A stretch of 31,866 bases of DNA from positions 1-31,866 of the IMG/VR virus record IMGVR_UViG_3300009790_000044. One strand, 5' to 3'. The position numbers and the translations under genes are program-made. The notes under the pieces are model-generated. The model saw only the letters and a program-made list of their open reading frames with translations, made no database searches and was not told the origin of the DNA. The stretch's first letter is position 1; each line of letters opens with the position of its first letter. Positions 6,342-30,541 of this stretch are shown here, in pieces. This DNA comes from a virus.

Positions 6342-6364
6342 TTCTTCTAAGACGGGGACTTTAG
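6342..6364 (-). promoter_or_regulatory. Phage RNA polymerase promoter before the tail fibre (phi17-like)
   Basis: On the minus strand CTAAAGTCCCCGTCTTA precedes a G at 6347 (proposed +1, GAAGAA). It matches the motif before gp2.5, gp4 and the structural block. The gp16-like stop TAA (6363-6361) lies inside it. T7 carries a promoter at the same gene junction. Confidence 0.8.
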
Positions 6365-9300
6365 TTAGGTGGGTAGTATTTTTCAGGGTCAATGCTTTTA
6401 GGTAGTAACCCTTCTAGACCAGCGTCTCTTCTTTTCTTATCCCACTCCATTGCTTTTTGCATGTTAGTTACATTGATGTCCCTAGCTGTTTTATCAATGA
6501 TAGGAAACTCACGTAACACATGTTCTAAAGCATATTTTTCATACTTCCTAACTAAGCCAAGAATAATTGCCTGTCTTAAGTCTTTCCCTTTTACGTCAGG
6601 GTCAGGATGTGTTTTATTTAATTGACTGTTAGCCCACAACACTTCTTCATTAAATGCTTGTTTTAATGTAAGGGCTTGCTTGTAATAAGGTGAATCTTTG
6701 TCTCTACTAATGTAAATTGGGACACCTAGTACAGATGTAGTTATTTCTCCTTTTAACTCTAACCACCTATCATACGCAGTTTGGTTGTTACTGTTTCTTA
6801 TTGTAGTTAAATCTAAATTACTATCTTTATGTGTAGTTGAAGGTCTTAAGTATTGTATCTCTCTTCCTTCTGTATTAAAGAAATCAGCTATTCTACTGTT
6901 GCTTGCTTTACTCATAGCAAAAGGACTAGACCACCAACCTTTGTCATCTCCAATACCGAACATCCATCCTCTTCTTCTATCTATTGGCTCACCAAACATA
7001 TTTCTTCTAGGCATGATTCTGTTATCACCATCAAATGGATTTAAAGTTGCAAGACGGTCTTGTAAGCTTCTGTATTCTTTTTCATGGTCTCTTTGTATTC
7101 TATCAGCATATCTAAGACCACCTGATAAAGGTACAAATTTAAATGAATGTCTTTGTACCATCTGTCCACCTTTTCTAATTGGGTCTTGCCAATACAATGC
7201 ACCATCACCTAATAACAAATCTATTGTTTCCATCATAGCTTTTGTATAGAATTTAGATGTAAGGTTTCTAGTTACAGCAGCTAGAGTTCCCATTGCTGCC
7301 TCTTCCAGTTTTTGCCACTCTTCTTCAGGTACATCATCTTGATGATTGTGTGCAAGATAGTCACTTATAACATCCCACATATCAGCTGCTATACCAAAAG
7401 GCATAAACAATGGGTCTAGTCTATTCATACTAATGTATGTGTCACCATCTTTAACTGAGTATTCTTGCCAACCTGTTAATGCTTTTCTTTCCTCATTTAC
7501 TTTATAATCTCTTGAGCCACCGCCTGTTACTTTACCATTCATAGCTGCTGTAATAGCTGCCATCCATATCATCCAACCCATAGTTACTCTTGCGTCAGCT
7601 TCTGCTGCTGCTGAAGGGTCGAAGTATGTTCCGTCTTTCTTTTTCTTCTTAGCTTGTTTCATAGCAAAATGGCTATAACCTAAAGGTGAGTGTTGCCATG
7701 TGTGTCTTAACAAGTTAGAAGGGGTGTTAATAAAGTTTAATCCAAAAGCCCTAGACCATCTGTTGTTTCCAGCCCATTTTAATATTGCACCACCTATACC
7801 ACCTTGTAGTTTATTGGTTTCAGGGTCTCTAAAATATGCAGAAGCTGTATAAGTACTTTCTCTTGCATAGTATGCTGGGTCATTATATAAACTTTTCTCA
7901 CCAGCAGTTAATAACTTAGAGTGTTTAGAATCAGCATTAGAAATTAAACGCCCTTGTGTGTCTTGTAAGTTGCTTATAAGCTCATCAAACTTTTGTTTAT
8001 ACAATGTAGGGTTATCCATTAGGTCAGGAAACTCTCGAAGAATTATTGTGTTAGCTTGAGCAGCTGCTCTTGCTTTAAAGTTCATGTATTTTAAGCCTTC
8101 GTCACCAGCTCCTAAGAATCTCATTGGAAATGAAATAGCCCTCATACTTGCTTTATATGGCAGAGCAATAGCACTGGCTGCACCTTGAGCTATATCTCCC
8201 ATGAGTCCCTCAGGTTTATTCCAAAGTTTATCCATGTTATCCGCCCATTGGACTAACAAGTTTTGTCTACCAATGGCGTCTTGTTTCATAGCTACTGGGT
8301 CTAAGATAGGTTTACCAGCGTATAGAGTTCTCCAAAATTGTTTTATACCATCAACAGTGTAATACATAGTATAAATCCAAGTATCCATAGCTTCTCTAGC
8401 AGTTGTTTTTGCTAGTTGACTGTCTTTGTTTGATAGATACGCAGCCCTAATTAACATAGTAGCTGGTTTAAGTTGGGTTTGTACTAAAGATGATGTGATG
8501 TTAAGGATGTGTGTATCAGGACTTGATAACAATGAGTTGTTAACCCATTCAGTAACATAGTCCCATCTAGATACATCTATGTCTTCAGGCTTAGCCAAAG
8601 CTTTAGACATGTCTCTTTTATCTTTTATTTGAGCAAGCTTCTTCCAATACTGAGTAGCGTCTCCTTCTAGTGTTTTTTTATAATTAGCGTCAGTTGGATT
8701 AAAGATGAGTTCGATAGTTTTCATATCTAAATCTTCATCAGTAAATCTTCTTTTTGCTCTCATAGAAGCCAGTACTTGAGCCACTGATTGCTCTATTTGT
8801 TTCTTAATAACCATTAAGTGTGCATTTAACTGTCTTCTCTTTTCTAATTCTTTTATGATTCTATCAGATTCTTTTTTAGATATATTAGGAGCGTCTAGCA
8901 TTACTAACAATTTACTTGTTTCGTCTCCATTGTTTAAAAGTTGCATATCCCACGCAAAGATTCTACCCGCTAACTTTCTCATGTTCTCAGGTAACTCAGG
9001 GTTAGACATAAAATCGTTTAACTCTTTTGGATTAACGTTAAACTCTTTAGCCATAGCTTCTACCTGTTCAAATGGTAGTGAATTGCTTACAGCGTCAATT
9101 TCATTTCCTAACTCATCTGCTTGTGCATTAATAAGGTTAACTAATTCTTCTTTGTTTTCACTGTACCTATTCATATTAAAGTGTGGTGTAGGTACTACTA
9201 CTCTTTCGTTCTTGTTGTTTACATAAGCTGTTCCATCTTTATTAGTAGTGTTATAGTTTTCATCTCCCATGTCTTTTAATTTAGAAGGAAGAGGTTTATT

Positions 9301-10284
9301 TACATCTACTATTTCTTTCCTTACGATTTCTTCAGCTTCTTTAGTTGTAGCTTTAGAACCTATTAAATCTTTTAGTTGTATAGGTCTTGCTATAACATTA
9401 AATAATTCTTTACCAGTGACATCATTGACACCTAAGTTATGTAGTGTTTCCATGTTTTTTACTGCTGAGTTCTTAAAGGATTGTTTACCTAAGAACGCTC
9501 CACCAGCACCAAAGCCACCACCAAACACTGTACCAAAAGCACTGCTTATAAGTGTGTTTCTTAATGTTTGTTGTAAGTCTCTTTCATCTCTTAAACCTGT
9601 TTTCATCTCTATGCTTTGTAGCATGTGGTCGTGAGTATAGCCGTAACCAGCTCCTATTAAAGCTTCTATACCAGCACCATAACCTATAGCTTTTGTGTAC
9701 ATACCTTTTGTACCACGCTCTATAGATTCTTCTAGCATTTCTTTGCTAAGTTCTTTTAGTGCTTTATCTTTTAAAGCGTCTTTTATACTGGCATTTACTG
9801 CTGTTTTAGCTACTGCTCCACCAGCACCAAAGCCTACTAAGTTAACAGGGTCTAATACTAATGCACCACCAACATCTAACAGCCATGTACCAAAGCTTCT
9901 TGGGTCTTTATCATTGTCCCACCAAGATGGTAGTTTGTTATAAGTGTCTTGGATGTAACCAAACTGTTTATTTCTAAATTCATCTTTCTCTTCTTGTATA
10001 CGGTCTAAATCGTTATACATTCCTACTGTGTTTAAGTTACCCCATGTTCTATCTTCATAGAAATATTCTAATAAATCAGCTTCATTCATTGACTCAAAGT
10101 CTTCATCAGGTGTAGTGTATGAATAATAGCTTCTTAATGTTTTATAGAATTTAGGGTCTTGTAAACGTTTTAAAGCTTCTTTAGAGTCTTGTGCTATACC
10201 AAAATCAATATCTGATTGTATCTCTTCTTCTTGTTGTTGCACTGTTGGTGCTTCAGGGTCAAGATTCCATTTAATAAATTCCAC
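6361..10284 (-). CDS. 16: Large internal virion protein (gp16 position)
   Basis: 1307 residues, close to the ~1318 of T7 gp16, and immediately before the tail fibre gene as in T7. The start is GTG (10284), overlapping the upstream stop (TAGTG); no nearby ATG fits. The protein has Gly/Ala-rich hydrophobic stretches that could enter or span membrane (about 138-160, 199-215 and 249-266) and long helical charged regions. T7 gp16 is ejected with gp14 and gp15 to form the channel through the cell envelope. The N-terminus here (EFIKWNLDPEAPTVQQQEEE) shows none of the lytic transglycosylase motifs found at the start of T7 gp16, so wall-cutting may be absent or done by another domain. Assignment rests on size and position; sequence similarity to gp16 is not obvious by eye. 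Confidence 0.85.
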   Translation of the reverse strand: MEFIKWNLDPEAPTVQQQEEEIQSDIDFGIAQDSKEALKRLQDPKFYKTLRSYYSYTTPDEDFESMNEADLLEYFYEDRTWGNLNTVGMYNDLDRIQEEKDEFRNKQFGYIQDTYNKLPSWWDNDKDPRSFGTWLLDVGGALVLDPVNLVGFGAGGAVAKTAVNASIKDALKDKALKELSKEMLEESIERGTKGMYTKAIGYGAGIEALIGAGYGYTHDHMLQSIEMKTGLRDERDLQQTLRNTLISSAFGTVFGGGFGAGGAFLGKQSFKNSAVKNMETLHNLGVNDVTGKELFNVIARPIQLKDLIGSKATTKEAEEIVRKEIVDVNKPLPSKLKDMGDENYNTTNKDGTAYVNNKNERVVVPTPHFNMNRYSENKEELVNLINAQADELGNEIDAVSNSLPFEQVEAMAKEFNVNPKELNDFMSNPELPENMRKLAGRIFAWDMQLLNNGDETSKLLVMLDAPNISKKESDRIIKELEKRRQLNAHLMVIKKQIEQSVAQVLASMRAKRRFTDEDLDMKTIELIFNPTDANYKKTLEGDATQYWKKLAQIKDKRDMSKALAKPEDIDVSRWDYVTEWVNNSLLSSPDTHILNITSSLVQTQLKPATMLIRAAYLSNKDSQLAKTTAREAMDTWIYTMYYTVDGIKQFWRTLYAGKPILDPVAMKQDAIGRQNLLVQWADNMDKLWNKPEGLMGDIAQGAASAIALPYKASMRAISFPMRFLGAGDEGLKYMNFKARAAAQANTIILREFPDLMDNPTLYKQKFDELISNLQDTQGRLISNADSKHSKLLTAGEKSLYNDPAYYARESTYTASAYFRDPETNKLQGGIGGAILKWAGNNRWSRAFGLNFINTPSNLLRHTWQHSPLGYSHFAMKQAKKKKKDGTYFDPSAAAEADARVTMGWMIWMAAITAAMNGKVTGGGSRDYKVNEERKALTGWQEYSVKDGDTYISMNRLDPLFMPFGIAADMWDVISDYLAHNHQDDVPEEEWQKLEEAAMGTLAAVTRNLTSKFYTKAMMETIDLLLGDGALYWQDPIRKGGQMVQRHSFKFVPLSGGLRYADRIQRDHEKEYRSLQDRLATLNPFDGDNRIMPRRNMFGEPIDRRRGWMFGIGDDKGWWSSPFAMSKASNSRIADFFNTEGREIQYLRPSTTHKDSNLDLTTIRNSNNQTAYDRWLELKGEITTSVLGVPIYISRDKDSPYYKQALTLKQAFNEEVLWANSQLNKTHPDPDVKGKDLRQAIILGLVRKYEKYALEHVLREFPIIDKTARDINVTNMQKAMEWDKKRRDAGLEGLLPKSIDPEKYYPPN

Positions 10285-12359: not shown

Positions 12360-12360
12360 G

Positions 12361-12948
12361 TTATACCTTTGGATTTGTACCTGTTATTGTCTCTGTCTCA
12401 TTAGGGTTAAATGGAGAATCAGCTCCTATCCCATAGCCAGTTAAGAATTTACGTTTACTAGCGTCTTCACTTAGATAACCAGCACCAGCTGTTGCTATTT
12501 GTAAACCAAGTCCTAATGCAGATGGTTTTGAGACAGGTGGTATCTTGTTATAAGTTCTTTGTAAAGTTGCATAAGAATTAGTGGCTTGTGTTTGTGCTTT
12601 ATACATATCAAAGTTAAACTCATTTAGAGTTTTAACCCATTGTAAATCTCTGTCTGCACCAAAGCTTCTCATAATTGCTATTGGATTTCCTAAATCCATG
12701 TTAAGGGCTTTGTGCTTATTTTGCCTATTAACTTGTGAAGCTTCAAAGTCTGATAACACTTTTTCTCTAGCTGCTAATCCTTTTTCTTTTTCTATCGCTT
12801 GTAAATCATTTAAATAAGCTATGTTAGCATTTGCTGCTGTAACTTTATTAGCTTGTTCCTGTGCTTCTGCTTGCTTTTTTTGAGCTTGATAGCCCATTAC
12901 GGATTGAGCTATTTGCAGTACAGCCATTGCTTCAGGTACGCCACACAT
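12361..12948 (-). CDS. 14: Internal virion protein (gp14-like)
   Basis: 195 residues, the same size as T7 gp14 (about 196). The N-terminus MCGVPEAMAVLQIAQSVMG combines the Met-Cys start also seen in T7 gp14 with a short hydrophobic segment, followed by a long Ala/Gln/Glu helix (QAQKKQAEAQEQANKVTAAN) and RNQ-type helices. A second hydrophobic segment, LGLGLQIATAGAGYL, lies at about 144-158. gp14 of T7 is ejected first and forms the outer-membrane pore. The gene starts inside the end of the gp13-like gene (17-base overlap) and is followed by the gp15-like gene one base after its end. Order and composition make this call firm, although the overall identity is clearly low. Confidence 0.87.
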   Translation of the reverse strand: MCGVPEAMAVLQIAQSVMGYQAQKKQAEAQEQANKVTAANANIAYLNDLQAIEKEKGLAAREKVLSDFEASQVNRQNKHKALNMDLGNPIAIMRSFGADRDLQWVKTLNEFNFDMYKAQTQATNSYATLQRTYNKIPPVSKPSALGLGLQIATAGAGYLSEDASKRKFLTGYGIGADSPFNPNETETITGTNPKV

Positions 12949-13414
12949 GTGTTATCTCCTTCATCATTAAATAAAATGGCATTTTAGCTTTGCCATATTG
13001 TTCTTCTCGTTCTATTGTATTAAATCCTAAATACCTAAGCCACTTAATAGACTTTTCATTTCTACAGTCTACGTAGTTGTATAGATATTTGTAACCTTTT
13101 CCCATTTCATCAACCCACTGGGGTGATTGTTTTATAAATTCTTTTTTATACTTAAATAATTCTTCACTAGATAATAACCAAGCTATACCATAGTCAGGTT
13201 CTATTGTTGGTACACTACCAAACATGCCTATAACATATTCTTCTTCTGTACCTATAACACTCCATGTTCTATGTCCTTTATATTCAAAAGGTGTCATAAG
13301 AGCCTCAACAGCTCCTACATTGTCTGACGCTTTGATTTCATCTAAGTCTGCTTGTCTAATTTTATCAGCAAGAAAAAGTACATCTGCTGAGATTGCCCGC
13401 CTCACATATGCCAT
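12932..13414 (-). CDS. 13: gp13-like protein with GNAT-like fold
   Basis: 160 residues. The pattern (MAYVRRAISADVLFLADKIR ... TWSVIGTEEEYVIGMFGSVP ... YNYVDCRNEKSIKWLRYLGF) is that of a GNAT-like domain: N-terminal strand and helix, a central strand with GMFG, and the late motif N-xx-SIKWLRYLGF that in GNATs packs near the acetyl-CoA tail. T7 gp13, in the same place between gp12 and gp14, is needed for particle morphogenesis and has this type of similarity. The pyrophosphate-binding Q/RxxGxG/A loop is not clear, so enzymatic activity is doubtful. The ATG overlaps the gp12 stop by one base (TAATG). An assembly role is inferred from synteny. Confidence 0.78.
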   Translation of the reverse strand: MAYVRRAISADVLFLADKIRQADLDEIKASDNVGAVEALMTPFEYKGHRTWSVIGTEEEYVIGMFGSVPTIEPDYGIAWLLSSEELFKYKKEFIKQSPQWVDEMGKGYKYLYNYVDCRNEKSIKWLRYLGFNTIEREEQYGKAKMPFYLMMKEITHVWRT

Positions 13415-16502: not shown

Positions 16503-16511
16503 AATGTCCTC

Positions 16512-16543
16512 AAGAAAGAGGGGACAGCATAAGCCATCCCCTC
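16512..16543 (-). terminator. Rho-independent terminator after the capsid gene (Tphi-like)
   Basis: The minus strand reads GAGGGGA ... TCCCCTC (arms 16543-16537 and 16524-16518), extendable by GC and wobble pairs to a stem of about eleven around a TTAT loop, followed by TTTCTT. It lies 20 bases after the capsid stop, the same place as the main T7 late terminator. Confidence 0.88.
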
Positions 16544-16564
16544 AGGGTTAAGTATAAGAAACGA

Positions 16565-17548: not shown

Positions 17549-17683
17549 AGTATAATCTCCTAGTTTAAAGTTTATCGTTGTGTTGAACGCCTCTAAGTCT
17601 CGTCATCAAGATTGTCTTCCGCAGAAGGTCAAGTTACTACTACTTGTTGGCAGCTGCCATCTAACGAGATAGCACAGCTTAAA
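17549..17683 (-). promoter_or_regulatory. Capsid mRNA leader with small hairpins
   Basis: This 135-base stretch is the longest non-coding gap in the window. On the minus strand it holds a perfect 12-base palindrome TGGCAGCTGCCA (17648-17659), then CAAGT...ACTTG, CTTCTGCGGAAG and AAGACAATCTT, all able to form small stems, and ends with the capsid ribosome site. I found no copy of the phage promoter motif in it. A role in RNA stability or processing is possible but unproven. Confidence 0.45.
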
Positions 17684-18465: not shown

Positions 18466-18477
18466 TTATTTTCTCCT

Positions 18478-20016: not shown

Positions 20017-20018
20017 AA

Positions 20019-20243: not shown

Positions 20244-20251
20244 ATTATCTC

Positions 20252-20494: not shown

Positions 20495-20496
20495 AT

Positions 20497-20736: not shown

Positions 20737-20933
20737 TACTTATCTCTATCCTTTAGTTCATTAATAAAACGAACAACATCACGTTGTCCAGCCTTGAAGT
20801 ATATGTCCTTCATTTCATCTGATAAGTCAGGTGACCTCTCAGGATACACAGTGTTTAACAATTTAATTAACTGTGGTACTGTGTTAGGTAAAGAAATTTC
20901 TTCTTCATCCCCTTCTATATCTTTTATTAACAT
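20736..20933 (-). CDS. Hypothetical acidic helical protein, 65 aa
   Basis: 65 residues, first gene after the promoter at 20940-20962, with GAAGGA eleven bases or fewer before its ATG. The sequence (MLIKDIEGDEEEISLPNTVP ... DLSDEMKDIYFKAGQRDVVR) is acidic at the start and helical afterwards. It has no cysteine or membrane segment and no motif I recognise. In T7 gene 6.5 holds the same place and is likewise of unknown function. The gene's placement at the head of the structural unit suggests high expression. Confidence 0.7.
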   Translation of the reverse strand: MLIKDIEGDEEEISLPNTVPQLIKLLNTVYPERSPDLSDEMKDIYFKAGQRDVVRFINELKDRDK

Positions 20934-20939
20934 ATTTTA

Positions 20940-20962
20940 TCCTTCTAAAACGGGTACTTTAA
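20940..20962 (-). promoter_or_regulatory. Phage RNA polymerase promoter before the structural genes (phi6.5-like)
   Basis: The minus strand has TTAAAGTACCCGTTTTA followed by G at 20945 (proposed +1, GAAGGA). This is the best-formed copy of the family. The NrdB stop TAA (20961-20959) is within it. The first transcribed bases, GAAGGA, also serve as the ribosome site of the next gene, giving a leader of only 12 bases. Confidence 0.85.
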
Positions 20963-21906: not shown

Positions 21907-23658
21907 TTATCCCTCGCAAGCTATACATTCCCCATCAGGAATTATTGTTCGTTCTATCTTTTGTGATACTAGTTCTGCTCTCTTGATTGCTTCCGAGCGA
22001 CAGTAGTAAAGTGTCTTCAGTTTTCTTTTCCAAGCCAACATATGTATGTCATGTAACTCACGAATGTGTACATCAGCTGGAACAAATACATTAACAGATT
22101 GTCCCTGACAAATAAACTCTTGTCTGTCAGCAGCGTGCTCAATGACCCATTGCTGATTAATTTCTATGGCTGTCTTAAATGTATCTTTCTCATAATCAGA
22201 CAGTCCTTTAAGTTCTAACACTGAGCCTCTGTTGGCTAGTATCTTTTTCCATGTCTTATCATCATTCATTCCTTTGCTTTCTAATAGTTTTTCTAGGTGT
22301 TTGTTCTTAACCAAGAATGAACCTGACATAGTCTTCTGTACATAAGCGTTAGCCCTGTAAGGTTCGATAGATGGTGAAGTAGTACCACAGATAATGGAGC
22401 TAGAAGCGTTAGGTGCAATAGCTAAGAGATGTGCGTTACGCATACCAGTGCCAGCCATGTCAGGTGCTTCACCTTTCTTAATAGCTAATCGTTTAGATTC
22501 TTGGACCGCTTGGTCTTTAATATGTTTAAACATCTGCATGTTCTTTGACTTAGCCAGTGCTGATTCAAATGGTATGCCGTGTGATTGTAAGTATGAATGA
22601 AATCCCATTGCACCCAACCCTAGACTACGTTCGTTTACAGCAGAAAACTTAGCCTTTTCTAAAGTGTCAGGTGCATTGTCGATAAAGTGTTGTAGTACGT
22701 TATCGAGGAAGTGGATTAAATCAGGTATAAACATCTTACATGTTTTCCATTCATCATACTTTTCTAAATTGACAGACGATAAACAACACACAGCTGTGCG
22801 GTCATCATCAGTTGGTAGGGTAATCTCTGTACATAAATTAGAATGATGTACTTTGAGACCTAATTCTTTTTGTGCTTCGGGTAACCCATCATTGACTGTG
22901 TCACTAAACATAATGTATGGCTCACCTGTGGCGACACGATTCTCAAGTATGCGTTGCCATAGCTCACGGGCTGAAACAGTCTTGACCACTTTGTTAGTGT
23001 GTGGGTCAATTAGATTCCATGAGTCATCATAGGTGGCTTCTTTGATACAGTTGTCTATAAGCTCCATGAAGTCATTAGATATGTTAATGCCGTGATGTAA
23101 ATTCAGGCATTTCCTGTGTATGTCACCACCACTAGGCTTACGCATTTCTAGAAACTCTATAATTTCAGGATGGCTTACGTCCATGTAAGCGGCATAGCTG
23201 CCCCTTCTAGTCTTTCCTTGAGAGAAGGCTAACATCTCTGAGTCTACTACATGTAGAAAAGGTATTGACCCTGACGACTGAGACCCATTACTTGTACCAG
23301 TTCCATCTGAGCGAACGTGTCCCCAGTATCCACCAACCCCGCCACCGACAGAAGCCAGCCATGCGTTTTCAGTGTAGTGTCCAGTCAATCCCTCTCTACT
23401 ATCAGGAACATAATTAAGGAAGCATGAAATAGGCAGTCCTCGTTCTGTTCCACCATTAGTTAATATAGGTGTTGCATACATGAACCACAGCTTAGATGAA
23501 TAATTATATATACGTTCAGCCATCTCATCATTATCAGAGAACGCTTTGGCGGCTCTCATAAATGCGTCTTGCGGTGACGACTCAGTTGGTAATAAGTACC
23601 TATCATGTAAGGTAGTCTTACCAAACGAGGTCAATAGTTCATCTCTACTGTAATCCAT
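21907..23658 (-). CDS. nrdA: Ribonucleotide reductase class I large subunit, short form without ATP cone
   Basis: 583 residues, against about 760 for E. coli NrdA. Catalytic elements are present: Cys79 (SCFL), NLCTE at 274-278 with thiyl Cys276 and Glu278, Cys292 (CCLSSVNL), the phosphate-binding PNASSSIICGTTSPSIEP (416-433), radical-relay tyrosines 551-552 (LYYCRS) and the C-terminal redox pair Cys578/Cys581 (ECIACEG). The chain starts close to the catalytic barrel (LWFMYATPILTNGG at 57-70), so the N-terminal ATP cone that shuts the host enzyme off with dATP is missing. A strong ribosome site (AGGAG) precedes the ATG. With NrdB it forms the nucleotide-supply pair between the replication and structural genes. 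Loss of overall feedback control is inferred. Confidence 0.96.
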   Translation of the reverse strand: MDYSRDELLTSFGKTTLHDRYLLPTESSPQDAFMRAAKAFSDNDEMAERIYNYSSKLWFMYATPILTNGGTERGLPISCFLNYVPDSREGLTGHYTENAWLASVGGGVGGYWGHVRSDGTGTSNGSQSSGSIPFLHVVDSEMLAFSQGKTRRGSYAAYMDVSHPEIIEFLEMRKPSGGDIHRKCLNLHHGINISNDFMELIDNCIKEATYDDSWNLIDPHTNKVVKTVSARELWQRILENRVATGEPYIMFSDTVNDGLPEAQKELGLKVHHSNLCTEITLPTDDDRTAVCCLSSVNLEKYDEWKTCKMFIPDLIHFLDNVLQHFIDNAPDTLEKAKFSAVNERSLGLGAMGFHSYLQSHGIPFESALAKSKNMQMFKHIKDQAVQESKRLAIKKGEAPDMAGTGMRNAHLLAIAPNASSSIICGTTSPSIEPYRANAYVQKTMSGSFLVKNKHLEKLLESKGMNDDKTWKKILANRGSVLELKGLSDYEKDTFKTAIEINQQWVIEHAADRQEFICQGQSVNVFVPADVHIRELHDIHMLAWKRKLKTLYYCRSEAIKRAELVSQKIERTIIPDGECIACEG

Positions 23659-23666
23659 ATTTACTC

Positions 23667-23921
23667 CTATAATATGTTAAGGGGGTTAACGTGTGTGTTT
23701 TCTTTAATCAATATATCTATATACTGTCGGGCTTTCTTTAAATCCTCAAGCTTACCTTCCATGTCCTTGTGCTTGGTACGCCAGCGACATAGATACTTGA
23801 TAACATTAGCCTCACAGTATGGTATCTCATTCTCGATAATAAACTGGATGGGTTGTATCTTATATCTTGAGTAATGCTTGGGATTGATTGCGTCTACTTC
23901 TACCTTCTTCTTGGTTGCCAT
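23667..23921 (-). CDS. DUF3310 / SaV-like small protein
   Basis: 84 residues. The sequence INPKHYSRYKIQPIQFIIEN followed by ANVIKYLCRWRTKHK and LEDLKKARQYIDIL is the DUF3310 signature found in many phages (PxHY, I.P...I, NVIKYL.R...K...EDL.KA..Y...L). A similar domain occurs in the T7 gp1.7 nucleotide kinase, so a role in nucleotide metabolism is plausible; I do not see a P-loop. It overlaps the end of the exonuclease gene by 22 bases and precedes NrdA by eight, which fits nucleotide metabolism. The family call is good and the biochemical role uncertain. Confidence 0.85.
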   Translation of the reverse strand: MATKKKVEVDAINPKHYSRYKIQPIQFIIENEIPYCEANVIKYLCRWRTKHKDMEGKLEDLKKARQYIDILIKENTHVNPLNIL

Positions 23922-24691
23922 AGTTTTACTTCTCCTTTTTTTCTATTGTAATCTCCTTTACGTAAGATACGGGCACACCTAGCTTGTTGCAAAGCTTCAG
24001 CCTCAGTGTATCCCTTCTTCTTATAGGTATATAATACTTTGTCCCACAGTTCTAAGATGGGTACATTAATATCATCCCCTAGTATCTTCTCAGCTGTCTT
24101 AATACCTATACTAGGACAGCCAGCATATCCATCTACTGCGTCACCAGTTAGGGACTGTATCATAAACCAGTAATCAGCTTCGGCTTGGGTTATCTTATTG
24201 ACGGTAGTTCCATCAGCACATACTTTTGTAGGTATCTGTCTTAAGTCTTTATCAATAGAGACAATGACATTATCATAATCATAGTATGGGTCAGGTGTTG
24301 TAGCTAAGATACCTAAGACATCATCTGCCTCTAGGTTATCCCACATCACACCTTTGTGGTTTTCCATTATGTGCTTACGTAGTAACGGTAGTACTAATGG
24401 TTTACGTTTAGCTTTACGATTGTCTTTGTATGTTGGTAGTACATCCTTCCTAAAGTTAGTAGGGGATGTTAAACATATCCTGACTTTGTCTCCGTCTAAG
24501 TTTTGTTTGAGTGTCTTAATGGCTTCATCTACTAGACCACAGCACTTGTCCTCGTATGAGTGTAGTGTCCATAGTCCATCACCCCAGTTAACTGCTTCTT
24601 CATTTTGAAGAGCGACAGTATAAATAAGAATGTCACCATCAATAAGTAACTGCTTCTTAATGTGCAGTGGTTGTTTAGGTTGTCTGTTCAA
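23900..24691 (-). CDS. 6: 5'-3' exonuclease (gp6-like, FEN family)
   Basis: 263 residues. The start appears to be TTG at 24691, overlapping the polymerase stop (TTGA) with GGAG nine bases upstream; no in-frame ATG occurs early enough to keep the needed N-terminal LLIDGDIL motif (Asp18, Asp20). Further metal-binding motifs are NLEADDVLGI, SIDKDLRQIP and the helix-three-turn-helix LTGDAVDGYAGCPSIGIKTA. These match the FEN/T7 gp6 exonuclease family, which removes RNA primers and degrades host DNA in T7. The late part contains a copy of the phage promoter motif (24047-24069). Length is shorter than T7 gp6 (about 300). Confidence 0.93.
   Translation of the reverse strand: MNRQPKQPLHIKKQLLIDGDILIYTVALQNEEAVNWGDGLWTLHSYEDKCCGLVDEAIKTLKQNLDGDKVRICLTSPTNFRKDVLPTYKDNRKAKRKPLVLPLLRKHIMENHKGVMWDNLEADDVLGILATTPDPYYDYDNVIVSIDKDLRQIPTKVCADGTTVNKITQAEADYWFMIQSLTGDAVDGYAGCPSIGIKTAEKILGDDINVPILELWDKVLYTYKKKGYTEAEALQQARCARILRKGDYNRKKGEVKLWQPRRR
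24047..24069 (-). promoter_or_regulatory. Probable intragenic phage promoter inside the exonuclease gene
   Basis: The minus strand has TTAATGTACCCATCTTA followed by G at 24052 (GAACTG). It differs from the group consensus essentially only at -13 (T for A); the other variable positions occur in other copies. It would add transcripts for DUF3310, nrdA and nrdB. Coding constraint (VPILELWD region) makes chance possible but a 16/17 match is unlikely. Confidence 0.65.
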
Positions 24692-26427
24692 TGTGTTTCG
24701 CTCCAGTTGTCACCGACTTTGTATTCACCAGTCAGTGGTATTCTTAAATCAAAGTACTTGCCTGTTGCTTCGATAGCTTCGACAGCTTTCTTACCTATGA
24801 TGTCCGCCCAGTCATTTCCACACTCTACTTGTATTTCATCATGTACCCACACCACTTGGTTAACATTCATGTACCCTTGTGTCCTTTTATTAAACTCAAC
24901 CAACCAACGTTTGCATACTAATGCACCACCTGATTGTAGTAATGTATTCAATGCTGAATGTGCTGAGCGTACCTTAACGTTCCTACCATCTAGTCCTTTG
25001 ATGTAACCTTTGGCAGCCGACGTTTGTACAGCTTCCATAAGTTTACTCAAGGCTGGTAGGTTGTTTAAGAATCTTTGTTTAACTAACTTAGCTTCCTTAA
25101 CTGACTTACCAGTAACGTCAGCTATTTTGTTAACGCCACCACCATACAAGAAACAATAATAAAAACGTTTAGCTAAGTCTCTTGAGTCTAGACCAGCTAA
25201 CTTCTGTGTCTCTGTGTGTATGTCACCATCAAGTACTACCTTAGTGTATGCCCCGTTGTCAAACTTAGCCATGTAGTGTGCTAACATTCTGACTTCCAGT
25301 GCTGATACATCTATGCCCACTAGCTTACGATTGTATGGTGTAGTAAATAATTCTCTACACTCTTTACCGTATGGTGCGTGAGCACTGGGTACTTGTGCTA
25401 AATTAGGGTAGGCATGGCTGGCTCTTGCAGTCACCGTTGAATTAGTGTTGCAAGTGCCGTGAAGTCTGCCAGCTTTAACAAGCTTCAACCATGCCTGATT
25501 CCCCGTAGCTAACTGTCCAATCCTTTTATCTAAAAGGAAATGTTCAGCGAGGAGTTTCGCTTCGGGAAAATCTAAACTATTTAATACTGCGTCATCTACC
25601 TTTGGTTTACCGTCAGATGTATACTCGTCAGGCTTCCAGCCATACTTTTCTATTAGTCTTTGTGATACGTGTTGTCTACTGGATGGATTAAATACTTCTT
25701 CAGTCTTCTTAATAAATGGTTGTCCCTTAACATACCCTCTAGTCTTGTTGTTAACTTTGGGTATGAATGTTGTCTCTTTAACAATAGGTGGGAATAATTC
25801 TTGTAACTCTTCTTCTATCTCTAAGCGTCTAGCTTCTAGTCTACCGTAGAGTTCTTTAGCTTTGTCTTCATCAAACATAAAACCAAATTGTTCTTGCTTA
25901 AATATAATCTTAGCAACGTCATGCTCTAGCTTCATAGCTTTATCAGAGTAACCCTTCTTCTCTATTGCTCTGTATAAACCAACGTTAACATGTACGTCTT
26001 GCTTACAGTACTCTAACATCTCAGGCGTAAACGTTTTCCAGTCAGTCTCTATGTGTGCTTTGTATGTACCGATACGGTGACCCCATGACTCAAGGCTGTG
26101 TCTGCCTATAAGTTTAGTTGGAAAATCTTTACCACGTTTAAAGTCTGCGTCTCTAATGTCAGGGAATAATAAACGAGTAGCAATGATGGTATCAAAGACA
26201 TCACCTTTAGGTTTAAAGTCATATAACTTTTTCAATACAGGTAAATCAAACTTTAAAATGTTATGACCCACTAGTAAGGCTGCTTTTTCCATGCGGTGTA
26301 TAGCTTCCTCTACTGGGACATCTATTAATTCATCTTTATCTAAATCATAAAGTACAATGCAATGTACCTTAGTACACTCATGTAAGAAACCATCAGTTTC
26401 TATATCAAATAAATATCTTCTCTTCAT
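24688..26427 (-). CDS. 5: Family A DNA polymerase (gp5-like)
   Basis: 579 residues (T7 gp5 has 704). Proofreading domain: FDIETDG with Asp8/Glu10, HNILKFDLPVL with Asp61 and YCKQDVHV with Asp144. Polymerase domain: motif A GIDVSALEVR (Asp373), motif B RDLAKRFYYCFLYGGG (Arg416, Lys420, Tyr424) and motif C WVHDEIQVE (Asp530, Glu531). The O-helix residue equivalent to E. coli 762 is Tyr, as in T7. The stretch between LFPP and VFNPSSR (214-251), where T7 carries its thioredoxin-binding insert, is only about 35 residues. Starts with an ATGA overlap on the nuclease gene. It replicates the genome with gp4, gp2.5 and gp6. Confidence 0.97.
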   Translation of the reverse strand: MKRRYLFDIETDGFLHECTKVHCIVLYDLDKDELIDVPVEEAIHRMEKAALLVGHNILKFDLPVLKKLYDFKPKGDVFDTIIATRLLFPDIRDADFKRGKDFPTKLIGRHSLESWGHRIGTYKAHIETDWKTFTPEMLEYCKQDVHVNVGLYRAIEKKGYSDKAMKLEHDVAKIIFKQEQFGFMFDEDKAKELYGRLEARRLEIEEELQELFPPIVKETTFIPKVNNKTRGYVKGQPFIKKTEEVFNPSSRQHVSQRLIEKYGWKPDEYTSDGKPKVDDAVLNSLDFPEAKLLAEHFLLDKRIGQLATGNQAWLKLVKAGRLHGTCNTNSTVTARASHAYPNLAQVPSAHAPYGKECRELFTTPYNRKLVGIDVSALEVRMLAHYMAKFDNGAYTKVVLDGDIHTETQKLAGLDSRDLAKRFYYCFLYGGGVNKIADVTGKSVKEAKLVKQRFLNNLPALSKLMEAVQTSAAKGYIKGLDGRNVKVRSAHSALNTLLQSGGALVCKRWLVEFNKRTQGYMNVNQVVWVHDEIQVECGNDWADIIGKKAVEAIEATGKYFDLRIPLTGEYKVGDNWSETH

Positions 26428-26756
26428 TTGTTAAAGTGTTCTCCTTTGCTCATTTGTTGTCTATATTCTTTTAAGTCACGCTTGAACCAAACCTTTTTAG
26501 TTTCAGGACAGACGTAAACTATTCTTACACCAAGCTTATTACCTAGTGCATTAGTAATACGTGAAGTGACCCAACCCTTTGGGTTGTAATATGCACATTT
26601 AAAATCAATGTAAATACATTCATGGGTCTTGCTATTAATAGCGACACAGTCAATAACACCTTGTGGTGCTACGTTGTCGAAGACCCAGTAACCTTGCTCA
26701 ACCAGCCACGCCTTGCCGAACAGCTCAGCCCAGTGACCCTTATCTCTTTTCTTCAT
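26424..26756 (-). CDS. PD-(D/E)XK nuclease, Holliday-junction-resolvase-like
   Basis: 110 residues. It has the order expected for the PD-(D/E)XK fold: KGHWAELFGKAWLVEQGYWV with Glu11, then APQGVIDCVAINS with Asp36, and IYIDFKCAYY with Asp51-x-Lys53. The C-terminal half (LGVRIVYVCPETKKVWFKR) supplies the remaining strands. Archaeal and phage resolvases and VRR-type nucleases share this layout. Overlaps of four bases (ATGA) on each side place it in the replication unit, immediately before the polymerase. It may resolve branched DNA or act at replication forks beside endonuclease I; the specific substrate cannot be read. Confidence 0.75.
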   Translation of the reverse strand: MKKRDKGHWAELFGKAWLVEQGYWVFDNVAPQGVIDCVAINSKTHECIYIDFKCAYYNPKGWVTSRITNALGNKLGVRIVYVCPETKKVWFKRDLKEYRQQMSKGEHFNK

Positions 26757-27040
26757 AATTTTATTTTAATTATTTTTTGTATTACACAAGTGGGAATAAT
26801 AGTAGTGTTGCCAATATCTTTTATCTTACCATCACTATCAATGTTGAAGTCACTAGCTAGTCTAGTAACCTTGCTGTCTTTTTTAATTAACCATCCACTA
26901 GATATACATATAGGTAGCTCGTCTGTGATTAAGTCATCTTTATCACGCCACTCACTGTCTGACTCTATGTCATACCAGTAGACCATGACAAAGTCATGCT
27001 TCATTATATCTAGTTTAGGTAAGTATCTTTTCTTTTGCAT
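26753..27040 (-). CDS. Hypothetical protein, 95 aa
   Basis: 95 residues, beta-rich, with the pattern VYWYDIESDSEWRDKDD, LPICISSGWLIKKDSKVTRL and GNTTIIPTCVIQKIIKI. A similar pattern (W.D...DSSW, then a vague CVSVGWLL and a final IPKG.I) occurs in small proteins of many phages, where the function is unknown. Both start and stop overlap neighbours (TAATG and ATGA), so it is a true part of the replication unit between gp4 and the nuclease. I do not assign an activity. Confidence 0.72.
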   Translation of the reverse strand: MQKKRYLPKLDIMKHDFVMVYWYDIESDSEWRDKDDLITDELPICISSGWLIKKDSKVTRLASDFNIDSDGKIKDIGNTTIIPTCVIQKIIKIKL

Positions 27041-27264
27041 TAGTGTACGGGGTGTTTGACCACCTCTATTTGTAGGGCTCTGTTGTCCCCCTCTTCTATG
27101 AGTTGGTCAAGAGCCATGTTTATTAAACCTTCCGCAATATCAGTACCAACAGGAATTTGAATAATATGATTAGTCTCCTCAGTCTCCTTAAGGGCTCTCA
27201 TAATTATCTGTGTCCATTGTACTGATTTGTATTCCATGTTAGAAGTCGTCCTGTACATCTCCAT
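27040..27264 (-). CDS. Hypothetical protein, 74 aa (start uncertain)
   Basis: 74 residues from the ATG at 27264, which overlaps the end of gp4; an ATG at 27237, one base after the gp4 stop, would give 65 residues (MEYKSVQWTQIIMRALKE) and is equally likely. The sequence has two helices (QIIMRALKETEETNH and IAEGLINMALDQLIEEGD) around IIQIPVGTD and a final strand LQIEVVKHPVH. No recognised family. It lies between primase-helicase and the 95-residue protein with a TAATG coupling to the latter. Confidence 0.65.
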   Translation of the reverse strand: MEMYRTTSNMEYKSVQWTQIIMRALKETEETNHIIQIPVGTDIAEGLINMALDQLIEEGDNRALQIEVVKHPVH

Positions 27265-28837
27265 CTGTCTCCGTTAAACATCCTGTTGCTAAGTCATAGT
27301 AAAGAGTACAAGCCTTGCCTGTCTCTCCACTAAACCTGTTCTTAAGAATATTTACTTGAGCCAAGTTCTTGTCTGACTGTAAATCTCTAGACATACTTAT
27401 TATCATATCAGATAATTGTCCGATTGACGCAGACCCACGTAAACTATTCATTGATACTGCTACACCATCCTCATAACCTTTGTTACCTTCAGGTCTTTTA
27501 AGATGTGATACCAATATCAGTCCTATCCCTGTCTCTTCTACTAGAGTCCTAAGCTTTGATACTGTGTAATCTATAAGTTTACGCTCGTCACTTGTAGTCT
27601 CATCACCCACAGCTGACAATGCCATGTGTAAGTGGTCGAGTATTACAAAGTCAACGCCGCACCCTTTAGCTAAGTATCTAATCTTAGATAGTAAGTTGTC
27701 ACTTGCAGTTGAACCAAAGTGATTATATAAATAAAATTTACCACTGCCTACGGTCTTGTCGAAGACAGTCTTAAGCTTCTTATCATCAACACCAGTACGG
27801 TCTAGATGTAATGGCTTACCTAATTCTATACCCATAATACCTAAGGCACTACGCTTGATAGATTCCTCAAGTGCTATGTAACCAACGCTGAAATTTTTTT
27901 TCAGTAAATGTAAGGCTACATGTCTACAGAAACTAGACTTACCTACACCACTACCAGCGGTGACAGTAACCAGTTCACCTTTACGTAGTCCATGTGTCTT
28001 GATGTTAAGACAGTCAAAAGGATACTCTACTGTAACGTAGTTGTCTTCCTTCCGTATGTCATCCCACAGGTCAGCCCCAGCTACAATGCCGTCGGGCTGA
28101 TAAGCTTTGGCTGACCAAACGCAGTCGATTAACTCTTGTGCTTTACCAGCACACAGCATTTCGTTTGCGTCCTTCAAAGGCAACGAGCATATTTTTGCCT
28201 TGTTTGGTGAGAAGATTTTTGCACATTCAGTGGCAGCCTCTTTACCAGCTGTATCATTATCAAACATTAGAACAACAGAGTCGAAACCCTCAAGCCATTC
28301 TAACTCTTTAAGTAAATCACGCTTTGCCCCCTTAGCTCCAGTCTTAACTGATACTACAGGATACTTATTCTTATTTACTTTCGAGACAGAGAGAGCGTCA
28401 ATCTCACCCTCTGTAACAATAACCATCTTACCTTTATCACGCCATAGGTGCTGACCAAATAACTGAGCGTCCTTAGCTTCACCTATCCACTGAAAACTTT
28501 TATCAGGGTAGCGTAGCTTCTGAGCTACTAGTTCATGGTCTTTGTTATAGAAATTAGCTATCTGCACTGGTCTCTTATGAGCTGTGCCTATCTGATAGTT
28601 AAACTTCTGTAACGTATCGACATCTAGTTTACGTTTGGCAAGAGAGGTGACTGTCCCACTGACAAAGTCAGCGTTGCTGTTGGTGGAAAGCTCGGGTGTT
28701 GTCATTGATTCTCCATTTGTATGATATCCACAACCAAAACAGTAACTGTGTCCGTCGCTATATACGGCAAGGTTATCCTTGCTACCACAGGATGGACATG
28801 GTGCATGGTGTAGAAATGTGCTGTCATTTGTATTCAT
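27239..28837 (-). CDS. 4: Primase-helicase (gp4-like)
   Basis: 532 residues (T7 gp4A has 566). Zinc-binding primase finger: CPSC (14-17) and CFGC (33-36). Toprim core: VTEGEIDALS with Glu143 and MFDNDTAG with Asp193/Asp195. RecA-type helicase: Walker A GSGVGKSS (295-302, Lys300), Glu324-containing ALEES, Walker B VILDHLHM (398-405), ILVSHLKRP and an arginine-bearing NSLRGSASIGQL. The C-terminus is acidic and ends in Phe (DGDVQDDF), as in T7, where this tail binds the polymerase. It unwinds DNA and makes primers at the fork. The first ATG has no clear ribosome site and lies only three bases after the predicted +1 of its promoter. Confidence 0.97.
   Translation of the reverse strand: MNTNDSTFLHHAPCPSCGSKDNLAVYSDGHSYCFGCGYHTNGESMTTPELSTNSNADFVSGTVTSLAKRKLDVDTLQKFNYQIGTAHKRPVQIANFYNKDHELVAQKLRYPDKSFQWIGEAKDAQLFGQHLWRDKGKMVIVTEGEIDALSVSKVNKNKYPVVSVKTGAKGAKRDLLKELEWLEGFDSVVLMFDNDTAGKEAATECAKIFSPNKAKICSLPLKDANEMLCAGKAQELIDCVWSAKAYQPDGIVAGADLWDDIRKEDNYVTVEYPFDCLNIKTHGLRKGELVTVTAGSGVGKSSFCRHVALHLLKKNFSVGYIALEESIKRSALGIMGIELGKPLHLDRTGVDDKKLKTVFDKTVGSGKFYLYNHFGSTASDNLLSKIRYLAKGCGVDFVILDHLHMALSAVGDETTSDERKLIDYTVSKLRTLVEETGIGLILVSHLKRPEGNKGYEDGVAVSMNSLRGSASIGQLSDMIISMSRDLQSDKNLAQVNILKNRFSGETGKACTLYYDLATGCLTETDGDVQDDF
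28703..28714 (-). promoter_or_regulatory. Internal ribosome site and start for a gp4B-like helicase
   Basis: Within gp4, GGAG (28714-28711) precedes ATG (28705-28703, codon 45) by five bases. The resulting protein would lack the whole zinc finger but keep Toprim and helicase, the arrangement of the T7 short form 4B (start at codon 64). Confidence 0.65.
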
Positions 28838-28857
28838 GTCTAAAGGGGTACTTTAGT
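28835..28857 (-). promoter_or_regulatory. Phage RNA polymerase promoter before gp4 (phi3.8/phi4-like)
   Basis: The minus strand has CTAAAGTACCCCTTTA followed by G at 28840; the segment after CCC is one base shorter than in the other copies. The stop TAA of the upstream gene (28855-28853) is within the motif. The ATG of gp4 lies at +4, so the transcript would be almost leaderless. CTAAAG and CTTTAG also form a six-base inverted repeat around TACCC. Confidence 0.72.
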
Positions 28858-29041
28858 CGTAGGGTTTTCTGTCTTGTAATTTTTTATAAGCTTGGTCAAT
28901 CAAGAAAGCTACCTCACCTGACCCACTTCTAAATGATTCTTTAGTAAGAGAGACTAGTTTTTGTTTTGTCTCATGTGTTACTACTACTTGAGTGTATTTC
29001 TGTTTTCTTTCTGCATTAACGTCTCTAAATTTTTTTTCCAT
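28853..29041 (-). CDS. Small ribbon-helix-helix-like protein, 62 aa
   Basis: 62 residues: a basic N-terminus (MEKKFRDVNAERKQK), a predicted strand TQVVVTH, helix ETKQKLVSLTKES, turn RSGSGEV and helix AFLIDQAYKKLQDR. This strand-helix-helix order is that of Arc/CopG-type DNA-binding proteins, which act as dimers and usually repress or organise DNA. It has GGAG seven bases upstream of the start and lies between amidase and gp4. A role in regulating host or phage transcription is inference from the fold alone. Fold assignment is moderate. Confidence 0.65.
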   Translation of the reverse strand: MEKKFRDVNAERKQKYTQVVVTHETKQKLVSLTKESFRSGSGEVAFLIDQAYKKLQDRKPYD

Positions 29042-29055
29042 TTTATTTCTCCATT

Positions 29056-29499
29056 TTATTTTAATAGTTCTTGTACATTAAATTCAGGCTCAGTTGTGTG
29101 GAAGATGTCCCTGTGTCCTATGATTTCTATAACGTCAGGAAACTCCATCTTCAAGTCATCTACTGTCCGCTTCAATGCTTTAAACTGGTCAAGTGTGTAG
29201 TTACATTCTGATGTACCGTCACCTTTGCCACCACCTATCAATACTATACCGATAGAATTTTTATTGGTGGGTTGATGTTTGTTTCGGTTCATTTCGTAAT
29301 GTAAGAACGCACCAGCTGAGTCAATATCTCTACCGTCCTCTACTGTTCCATCTCTCTTTATTATTTTATGAAATCCACCTTCGAGTAAACCTTCCTTGCG
29401 TCCCTCTATGTCTATCTCTCTGCTACCCCAGTTTTCACTCGGTTTAGTATGAGAACAACAGACCACTATGTACTTGGTTTTTTTTCTTTGATTTCGCAT
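29056..29499 (-). CDS. 3.5: T7-lysozyme-like amidase (gp3.5-like) with altered active site
   Basis: 147 residues from the ATG at 29499; AAGGA abuts the ATG two codons earlier but lies six bases from this one. Similarity to T7 lysozyme is clear: TKPSENWGSREID, FHKIIKRDGTVEDGRD, NSIGIVLIGG, YTLDQFKALKRTV and IGHRD. T7 lysozyme is a Zn amidase that also binds and inhibits the RNA polymerase. Aligned by motif, Zn ligand His17 is Cys14 here (with His17 three residues later), Tyr46 is Phe43, Lys128 is Thr135, and ligand Cys130 is Glu137; only His129 of the metal site is conserved. Amidase activity may be changed or lost. The gene overlaps endonuclease I by 34 bases. Confidence 0.85.
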   Translation of the reverse strand: MRNQRKKTKYIVVCCSHTKPSENWGSREIDIEGRKEGLLEGGFHKIIKRDGTVEDGRDIDSAGAFLHYEMNRNKHQPTNKNSIGIVLIGGGKGDGTSECNYTLDQFKALKRTVDDLKMEFPDVIEIIGHRDIFHTTEPEFNVQELLK

Positions 29500-29915
29500 A
29501 GCCATTCCTTTGGAATATGTTTAGTAGCATACTTGAAGCCATACTTTTCACACCACATACCATATGTAGTCTTACTCCGTTTGTTTATCTTGGCTTTAGC
29601 ATTGCTGAATAAGAAACGTATATCCAATTCAGGATACTGTTCCTTAATTAGTTTCATTTTCTGTCTATCTGCTGTCGTAAACAATCCCTTCGTCTCAATG
29701 AATATGTTTTGCTCAGGAAGATAGAAGTCAGGTGTATAAGTATGTAGTTTCTCAGGTTTAGTGTACTTTAATTTAGTCTCTTCAAACTCATATAATATAC
29801 TTTGACTTCTAAGTTCCCCAGCGATTCGTTCTTCAAGTCCTGACCTGAATCCGTAAACTAGTCCAACCTTTTTAGAAGTCAGAGGTTTCCGTTTCAGTCG
29901 TGCTCTCCATGTCAT
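29466..29915 (-). CDS. 3: Endonuclease I, Holliday-junction resolvase (gp3-like)
   Basis: 149 residues from the ATG at 29915, exactly the T7 gp3 length; the frame is open 25 codons further up, but there it overlaps gp2.5 more and no ribosome site is seen. AGGAG lies 13 bases before the chosen ATG, which is long. Active-site motifs, numbered from this start: FRSGLE with Glu28, TYTPDFYLP with Asp63 and IFIETKG with Glu74 and Lys76, matching T7 Glu20, Asp55, Glu65, Lys67. Downstream, EQYPELDIRFLFSNA and WCEKYGFKYATKHIPKEW also follow gp3. It cuts branched DNA, helps break down host DNA and resolves replication intermediates. Confidence 0.95.
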   Translation of the reverse strand: MTWRARLKRKPLTSKKVGLVYGFRSGLEERIAGELRSQSILYEFEETKLKYTKPEKLHTYTPDFYLPEQNIFIETKGLFTTADRQKMKLIKEQYPELDIRFLFSNAKAKINKRSKTTYGMWCEKYGFKYATKHIPKEWLCEIKEKKPST

Positions 29916-30495
29916 TGTTAACTTGTGTCTCCTGATGTTCGTAGCCATCTGTTTCATCAAACCCGAAGCCTTTGGCATTGCCGCCACCACCTTCTACAAG
30001 TTTAATTATTTGTACTGCTCTCAGTCTCATAGAAACACCAGCACCAACCATAGCTGTATAGTATGGGATAAGTTCAGCTGATACTTTTATCTCTGACCCT
30101 GACCATACGTTTACATCTTTCATTGGTGTACCTTTAGCGTCAAACAATGCAACCTTGTTAGGTATAATTGTTCCGTCCTTAGATACTATCTGTGCTTTAC
30201 ATTTGAATTTAAAGATAGTGTTACCAGTTGAATTACCAGCGTCATCTACCTCTTCAAAGTAAGGTGCGTCAGCTTGTTTAATCTTCTTGCCCTTAGCTTT
30301 TTCTTGAGCTAATTCTTTAGAAGTTTCTAAAGCTCGGTCAATGCGTTGCATTAACTCTCCAGCGTCCTCAGTCTTTAAGATGAGATTAGTTTTATAATGC
30401 CCATTCTCATCAAAGCGAGTATCAGGCTGTGTTAACCACGCATACTGACTAACGCCAATAGGTGTTACTACTTTTTCATTTTGTTGTGTTGCCAT
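29872..30495 (-). CDS. 2.5: Single-stranded DNA-binding protein (gp2.5-like)
   Basis: 207 residues (T7 gp2.5 has 232). An OB-fold-like body (VTPIGVSQYAWLTQPDTRFD, YKTNLILKTEDAGELMQRID, WSGSEIKVSAELIPYY, MRLRAVQIIKLVEGG) is followed by a Gly-rich hinge and an acidic tail ending TETETSDF. The T7 tail also ends in Phe and contacts DNA polymerase and helicase. The FGFDETDGYE segment before the tail is typical of marine homologues. It coats ssDNA and stimulates gp5 and gp4. First gene after the RNA polymerase; ATG with GGAG seven bases upstream, driven by its own phage promoter. Confidence 0.95.
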   Translation of the reverse strand: MATQQNEKVVTPIGVSQYAWLTQPDTRFDENGHYKTNLILKTEDAGELMQRIDRALETSKELAQEKAKGKKIKQADAPYFEEVDDAGNSTGNTIFKFKCKAQIVSKDGTIIPNKVALFDAKGTPMKDVNVWSGSEIKVSAELIPYYTAMVGAGVSMRLRAVQIIKLVEGGGGNAKGFGFDETDGYEHQETQVNNDMESTTETETSDF

Positions 30496-30518
30496 TTTAT
30501 CTCCTTGATTATGGTTTT

Positions 30519-30541
30519 ATTATCTTATATGGGTACTTTAA
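30519..30541 (-). promoter_or_regulatory. Phage RNA polymerase promoter before gp2.5 (phi2.5-like)
   Basis: The minus strand has TTAAAGTACCCATATAA followed by G at 30524 (GATAAT). The RNA polymerase stop TAA (30540-30538) forms part of the motif. It lies just upstream of gp2.5, the place of T7 phi2.5. Confidence 0.82.

What the first reader, a model, noticed from the sequence alone, without database searches (positions are those of the whole stretch)
6342..30541. A family of five phage promoters (consensus TTAAAGTACCCGTTTTA-G)
Five minus-strand copies occur at 30541, 28857, 24069, 20962 and 6364. Three have identical 17-base spacing to a purine start (GATAAT, GAAGGA, GAAGAA), one intragenic copy agrees, and one (28857) is a base shorter. 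The +1 region TAGAAGGA resembles SP6, and the ACCCGT core resembles the marine Syn5 polymerase promoter as I remember it. Four positions match those of T7 phi2.5, phi3.8/4, phi6.5 and phi17. I see no copy before the capsid gene, where T7 has its strongest promoter.
Basis: partly seen in the sequence, partly recalled or inferred. Interest (0 to 1): 0.72.

Follow-up and report, generated by a model that had tools for sequence, protein, structure and literature searches.

The report
Promoters of a SAR11-phage RNA polymerase
A virus of the ocean's most abundant bacteria (SAR11) makes its own RNA-copying enzyme, and the five short repeats found here are almost certainly the start signals that enzyme reads; this is the expected T7-like arrangement, but the signals are new and differ from the one published guess for a relative.

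Summary
The window is a fragment of a T7-like phage of the HTVC019P/HTVC031P pelagiphage group (SAR11 viruses). All five minus-strand sites are real. A matrix trained only on sites downstream of the polymerase gene in other genomes ranks exactly these five first (12.7 bits or more; next 8.4).

They are very probably the promoters of the phage's own T7-type polymerase. The sites recur at the same gene junctions in isolates and metagenomic relatives. Where the polymerase diverges (HTVC019P, 120P, 121P, 201P, CRP-113), another motif family occupies those junctions. The copy inside the exonuclease gene is held by codon choice: its proline is CCC in 19 of 19 genomes, against 6% usage.

The Syn5 likeness is out of register by two bases. 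Early sites (one before the polymerase, one leftward) lie beyond the contig end.

The missing capsid promoter is real throughout the group. In its place sits a conserved structured RNA leader that is not in Rfam and may be the more novel find.

New member of a known kind; no transcript start is shown.

The parts
30525..30541 (-). Promoter between the RNA polymerase gene and the ssDNA-binding protein gene (T7 phi2.5 position); predicted start G30524 or A30525
   Evidence: 24.4 bits. The site follows ssb even where an extra gene lies between RNAP and ssb (L013, L015, L032-L034, L036).
28841..28857 (-). Promoter before the small gene/primase-helicase junction (T7 phi3.8 position), spacing one base short
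   Evidence: 12.7 bits. The same short form is in L015 and L016; other close relatives have ATTAAGTACCCCTATAAG with normal spacing at the same place.
24053..24069 (-). Intragenic promoter near the 3' end of the exonuclease gene
   Evidence: 15.3 bits. Proline codon CCC in 19/19 and leucine codon TTA in 19/19 relatives. In HTVC201P the same place reads AATGTTCCACTTTTAG, close to that phage's own core.
20946..20962 (-). Promoter at the end of nrdB, before small genes, portal and scaffold genes (T7 phi6.5 position)
   Evidence: 23.7 bits. The exact 22-mer is in 39 viral stretches; in 38 of 38 with sequence it lies at the nrdB stop.
6348..6364 (-). Promoter between the internal virion protein and tail fibre genes (T7 phi17 position)
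   Evidence: 12.9 bits. Counterparts in HTVC109P, 031P, 142P, HTVC168P and metagenomic records.
30538..31866 (-). C-terminal part of the phage single-subunit RNA polymerase (N-terminus lies beyond the contig end)
   Evidence: phrog_414, E 4.9e-144; Pfam PF00940; 74% to HTVC109P.
30901..30963 (-). Specificity-loop region of the polymerase (PEMKSKRVKTMLLGEVIKPRV)
   Evidence: Aligned to T7 R746/N748/Q758. Near-invariant in phages with the CCC core, changed in HTVC019P, 201P and 121P.
17575..17681 (-). Conserved structured RNA leader upstream of the capsid gene, where T7 has phi10
   Evidence: 14 of 18 pairs with changes on both sides, 96.7% of cells paired; model hit 86.3 bits.
16518..16543 (-). 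Terminator-like hairpin after the capsid gene (T7 Tphi position)
   Evidence: 11-pair stem followed by TTTCTT; T7 Tphi annotated at the same place.

Best explanation
The five sites are promoters for the T7-type single-subunit RNA polymerase encoded at the window's right end. The polymerase reads a core of about 17 bp, TAAAGTNCCC-(5 to 7 nt)-G ending in TAGA. It starts at the G, or the A just before it, and transcribes leftward in window coordinates through overlapping units: replication genes (30541, 28857), exonuclease/RNR genes (24069), portal-scaffold-capsid genes (20962) and tail fibre genes (6364). The capsid has no promoter of its own, so its mRNA must come mainly by read-through from 20962. 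A conserved RNA leader before the capsid gene and a terminator-like hairpin after it probably shape capsid output. Shown here: sequence, position, conservation, replacement together with the polymerase. Inferred: polymerase recognition, start base, transcript units, leader function.
For: Independent matrix ranks exactly these five first, all on one strand. The same sites at the same junctions, plus one before RNAP and others near the genome ends, in HTVC109P, 031P, 142P and HTVC168P, and in about 80 metagenomic loci and 12 larger records. HTVC019P, 120P and 200P lack the motif, but HTVC019P, 201P, 121P, 120P and CRP-113 carry their own families, nearly all on the gene strand, mostly at the same junctions, with zero hits to reversed patterns. 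Codon-level constraint on the intragenic copy: CCC 19/19 against 22/345 proline codons in the window; other conserved prolines of the gene are never CCC. The polymerase loop VIKPR goes with CCC cores and VFAPQ/VIMPQ with CAC cores. An inserted gene leaves the promoter with ssb rather than with RNAP. T7 promoter map agrees.
Against: No transcript or binding data. Three of the five sites score within the range of simulated windows. Spacing between CCC and the G varies from 5 to 7 nt, which is loose for a T7-type enzyme. The loop/core association rests on few independent lineages and a shared ancestry. The promoter-binding N-terminus of this polymerase is outside the window. The intragenic copy is missing in one sub-clade (L028-L034, L040 read CCA), which has a weaker hit nearby.
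Confidence: 0.92

Rival explanations
1. The sites are promoters for the host sigma-70 RNA polymerase.
For: They are AT-rich and lie upstream of genes on the coding strand.
Against: The sigma-70 scan of 15000-31866 finds fewer sites than shuffles (33 against 45.6) and none coincides with the sites there. Relatives with the same host genus but a diverged polymerase have a different motif at the same junctions.
Confidence: 0.02
2. The likeness is an artefact of gene junctions: a TAA stop followed by a ribosome-binding site in compact genomes.
For: Four of five sites overlap a TAA stop, and AAGGA at 20962 precedes the next start codon.
Against: The GTNCCC core is explained by neither element. Leftward and right-end copies keep TTAAAG away from such stops. 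The intragenic copy keeps CCC and TTA by codon choice. Conservation stops before the ribosome-binding region.
Confidence: 0.02
3. The sites are operators for a phage regulator, or origin or RNA-processing signals, rather than promoters.
For: Relatives such as HTVC109P carry a MarR-type regulator. The genome-end copies are followed by AT-rich palindromes. T7-type promoters can double as origins (established for T7).
Against: Sites lie before transcription units on the coding strand at T7 promoter positions. The motif is kept in phages without annotated MarR or integrase genes (HTVC031P, 142P, 168P). Its sequence changes with the polymerase.
Confidence: 0.04

Closest known systems
T7 phi promoters (TAATACGACTCACTATAG)
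   Same: About 17 bp upstream of the start, coding strand, same genes served (ssb, primase, post-exonuclease genes, tail fibre), cognate single-subunit polymerase
   Different: Core differs (T7 scores -10.6 bits); far fewer sites than T7; no phi9/phi10/phi13 counterparts; capsid promoter replaced by an RNA leader; a promoter directly before RNAP in relatives
Syn5 cyanophage promoter (ATTGGGCACCCGTAA)
   Same: Marine T7-like phage; letters ACCCGT in one of five copies; few promoters per genome
   Different: CCC-to-start distance 4 against 6; base after CCC not conserved here; scores -5.5 bits
SP6 promoter (ATTTAGGTGACACTATAG)
   Same: AG at the start site. The CRP-113 (GATTAGGTTGCACCATAG) and HTVC019P families look closer to SP6 by eye
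   Different: Window core CCC rather than CAC; scores -6.6 bits
LUZ100 phage-specific promoters (ONT-cappable-seq; PMC10134795)
   Same: T7-like phage with a promoter just before its own RNAP and a T7-like layout; antisense RNA reported
   Different: LUZ100 keeps a local promoter before its capsid gene; this group does not
Published prediction for HTVC031P RNAP (R20 in PMC11475235): AACTAATGCTCAATTTAGAGATA
   Same: Same polymerase clade (71% to the window)
   Different: That sequence occurs once in HTVC031P, inside a lectin-domain gene, and is not this motif

Membership tests
T7-type (Autographiviridae) phage promoters | Genome encodes a T7-type single-subunit RNA polymerase | tested here: met
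   phrog_414 E 4.9e-144; close full-length relative matches T7 RNAP structures, E about 1e-131
T7-type (Autographiviridae) phage promoters | Repeated conserved motif of about 17-23 bp on the coding strand before transcription units | tested here: met
T7-type (Autographiviridae) phage promoters | Positions match T7 promoters | tested here: met
   phi2.5, phi3.8, phi6.5 and phi17 positions; phi9, phi10, phi13 absent
T7-type (Autographiviridae) phage promoters | Motif changes together with the polymerase specificity loop | tested here: met
   few independent lineages
T7-type (Autographiviridae) phage promoters | Polymerase initiates transcription at the site | not testable with these tools
   Needs in vitro transcription or 5'-end mapping
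T7 promoter itself (CACTATA core) | T7 core sequence | tested here: not met
   T7 scores -10.6 bits against the motif
Syn5-type promoter | GGGCACCCGTAA in register with the start | tested here: not met
   Register differs by 2 nt; -5.5 bits
SP6-type promoter | CACTATAGAAG core and initial sequence | tested here: not met
   -6.6 bits; nothing conserved after TAGA

The most novel reading that the evidence does not exclude
In this phage group capsid output is set not by a strong dedicated late promoter, as in T7 and LUZ100, but by a conserved structured RNA leader on a read-through transcript. Phage-polymerase promoters near the genome ends, one facing leftward across early genes, add antisense shut-off or replication start.
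Probability: 0.35. Interest if true: 0.68.

Novelty: new member of a known kind. Interest (0 to 1): 0.45.

Why it matters
Pelagiphages are among the most abundant viruses in the sea, and no promoter motif for their polymerases turned up in the papers searched. The motif gives testable polymerase-promoter pairs (CCC, CAC and CRP-113 types) for cold, marine in vitro transcription. It also shows that the promoter assigned to the HTVC031P polymerase in a published screen is probably wrong. Matched polymerase loops and promoter cores at identical gene positions are a natural series for studying how promoter specificity switches. The capsid RNA leader found where a promoter was expected is a separate open question.

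Tried and rejected
Sigma-70 promoter reading. Syn5 and SP6 kinship. A genome search with a pattern carrying one base too many in the spacer was discarded and repeated. Single-sequence folding of the capsid leader was not significant (z -0.67 and -0.54); only the alignment shows its structure. Rfam, gathering and permissive thresholds: no credible match. No tRNA in the window. A motif for HTVC200P/119P was not resolved: the candidate hits are close in number to the control. The capsid-leader model gave no match in the T7, P-SCSP1k or S-CBP3 capsid regions. No paper found describing these promoters or the leader; one leader search failed on a term error and was not repeated.

Full report
What the window is. 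The window is an IMG/VR virus record of 31,866 bases from a T7-like phage: RNA polymerase, ssDNA-binding protein, endonuclease, amidase, primase-helicase, DNA polymerase, exonuclease, ribonucleotide reductase, portal, scaffold, capsid, tail and internal virion genes, all on the minus strand. Its polymerase is 74% identical to that of Pelagibacter phage HTVC109P and 71% to HTVC031P, and up to 98% to metagenomic relatives. The contig ends inside the polymerase gene, so the early region is missing.

The observation. All five sites are present where stated. To avoid circularity I built a matrix only from sites downstream of the polymerase gene in other genomes (18 distinct sequences) and scanned the window. 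The top five hits are the five reported sites, all on the minus strand (24.4, 23.7, 15.3, 12.9, 12.7 bits; next 8.4). The 30541 site is of the trained class, and two training loci carry the identical sequence, so the independent result is the other four. With permuted matrix columns, none of 1000 gave five hits on one strand. The three weaker sites are not exceptional by score alone, since simulated windows reach 18.6 bits; position and conservation make the case.

Conservation by position. HTVC109P, 031P and 142P carry strong hits before RNAP, between RNAP and ssb, after nrdB and before the tail fibre gene, with a weaker one inside the exonuclease gene; HTVC168P has the same sites at the junctions inspected. 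About 80 metagenomic loci show the same pattern plus the primase-side site, and 12 larger records add the tail-fibre site. The exact 22-mer at 20962 occurs in 39 viral stretches and lies at the nrdB stop in all 38 that can be checked. In some relatives an extra gene sits between RNAP and ssb, and the site stays upstream of ssb.

Replacement with the polymerase. HTVC019P, 120P and 200P (polymerase 62, 52 and 44% identical) lack the motif. Instead HTVC019P and 201P have TAAMSTTACACTWTTAG, HTVC121P TAAAGTTKCACTWTTAG, HTVC120P (W)AGNNCCCNTATTAGAA and roseophage CRP-113 GATTAGGTTGCACCATAG. These lie nearly all on the coding strand, mostly at the same junctions and genome ends, with no hits to the reversed patterns. 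The polymerase specificity loop is near-invariant (KRVK[AT]ML[ML]GEVIKPR) in the CCC group, keeps IKPR in HTVC120P, and reads VFAPQ or VIMPQ in the CAC group. The changed residues align next to T7 Q758, a promoter-contact position (established knowledge of T7 RNAP). I take this as support, not proof: few lineages are independent.

The intragenic copy. In 19 CCC-type relatives the proline at the site is CCC every time, although CCC is 22 of 345 proline codons in the window and never appears at the other conserved prolines of the gene; the following leucine is TTA 19 of 19. In HTVC201P the protein stays NVPLL but the DNA reads GTTCCACTTTTAGA, close to that phage's own core. One sub-clade has lost the copy (CCA) and has a weaker hit nearby.

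Motif anatomy. Across 87 distinct sites with standard spacing, information lies in TAA(A)GT-CCC-T--(T)AG-A and falls to near zero after that A. The SP6-like AAGGA is therefore not part of the motif. Syn5, SP6 and T7 promoters score below zero. CCC-to-G spacing is 6 in most sites, 7 in 12 sites of one sub-clade, and 5 at window site 28857 and its counterparts in L015 and L016. Some tolerance of spacing is therefore likely, and the start base (G or the A before it) is open.

Mechanism. The polymerase transcribes leftward (in window coordinates) from these sites, serving the same gene blocks as T7 phi2.5, phi3.8, phi6.5 and phi17. There are no counterparts of phi9, phi10 or phi13. Relatives have a promoter directly before RNAP, as reported for LUZ100, suggesting self-amplification.

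The capsid gap. No site scores above 2.7 bits in the 180 nt before the capsid gene in 89 phages. Instead that region carries a conserved RNA: two hairpins with 14 of 18 pairs showing changes on both sides, 96.7% of cells paired against 57% or less when slid. It is not in Rfam. In fetched loci 134 of 136 core copies lie 56-131 nt before a capsid gene; the other two sit at contig ends. A terminator-like hairpin follows the capsid gene, as Tphi does in T7. The leader's function is inferred: an RNA element adjusting capsid mRNA made by read-through.

Beyond the window. In 23 of 30 loci with enough upstream sequence a strong copy faces leftward in the early region or near the genome end, often followed by an AT-rich palindrome shared with the right-end copy. 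It could drive antisense RNA across early genes or start replication; this is not tested.

Published work. One screen paired the HTVC031P polymerase with a predicted promoter, AACTAATGCTCAATTTAGAGATA (PMC11475235), which lies once inside a lectin-domain gene and differs from the family found here. In that screen 18 of 26 enzymes were inactive; the text does not say which side this one fell on. No paper describing the pelagiphage promoters was found in the held library.

Verdict.

Noticed in passing
window 17575-17681 (-); also L086:18298-18426, L088:19934-20050 and many others: Conserved two-hairpin RNA (AGUUGUGC...GGCAACU; CUUGACC-NNN-UGCG-NNN-GACAAUC) upstream of the major capsid gene in pelagiphages and a roseophage; strong covariation, not in Rfam 15.
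   Followed up: partly
L012:7573, L005 about 2443, L087:38819, L094:39018 (outside the window): Strong leftward-facing copy of the phage promoter in the early region or near the genome end, followed by an AT-rich palindrome also found after the right-end rightward copy; in 23 of 30 loci with sequence there.
   Followed up: partly
L086:33805-33827: The promoter assigned to HTVC031P polymerase in PMC11475235 lies inside a lectin-domain gene and is not the motif found here.
   Followed up: yes
window 1-405 (-): Partial gene matching Pfam FA_desaturase just at the cut-off (29.8 against 29.7 bits); possibly an auxiliary metabolic gene in a SAR11 phage.
   Followed up: partly
window about 17685-17732 (-): Tiny reading frame MACNYKKKKKGKGGK overlapping the scaffold stop (TAATG), with lysine-rich frames at similar places in some relatives.
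   Followed up: no
window 16518-16543 (-): Strong terminator-like hairpin directly after the capsid gene, at the T7 Tphi position.
   Followed up: no
L058-L084, sites downstream and upstream of RNAP: In this sub-clade the two sites flanking RNAP have 7 nt between CCC and G, while other sites in the same genomes have 6.
   Followed up: no
window 12932-13414 (-): Weak Pfam match to T7 Gp13 (26.0 against cut-off 25); otherwise unannotated.
   Followed up: no
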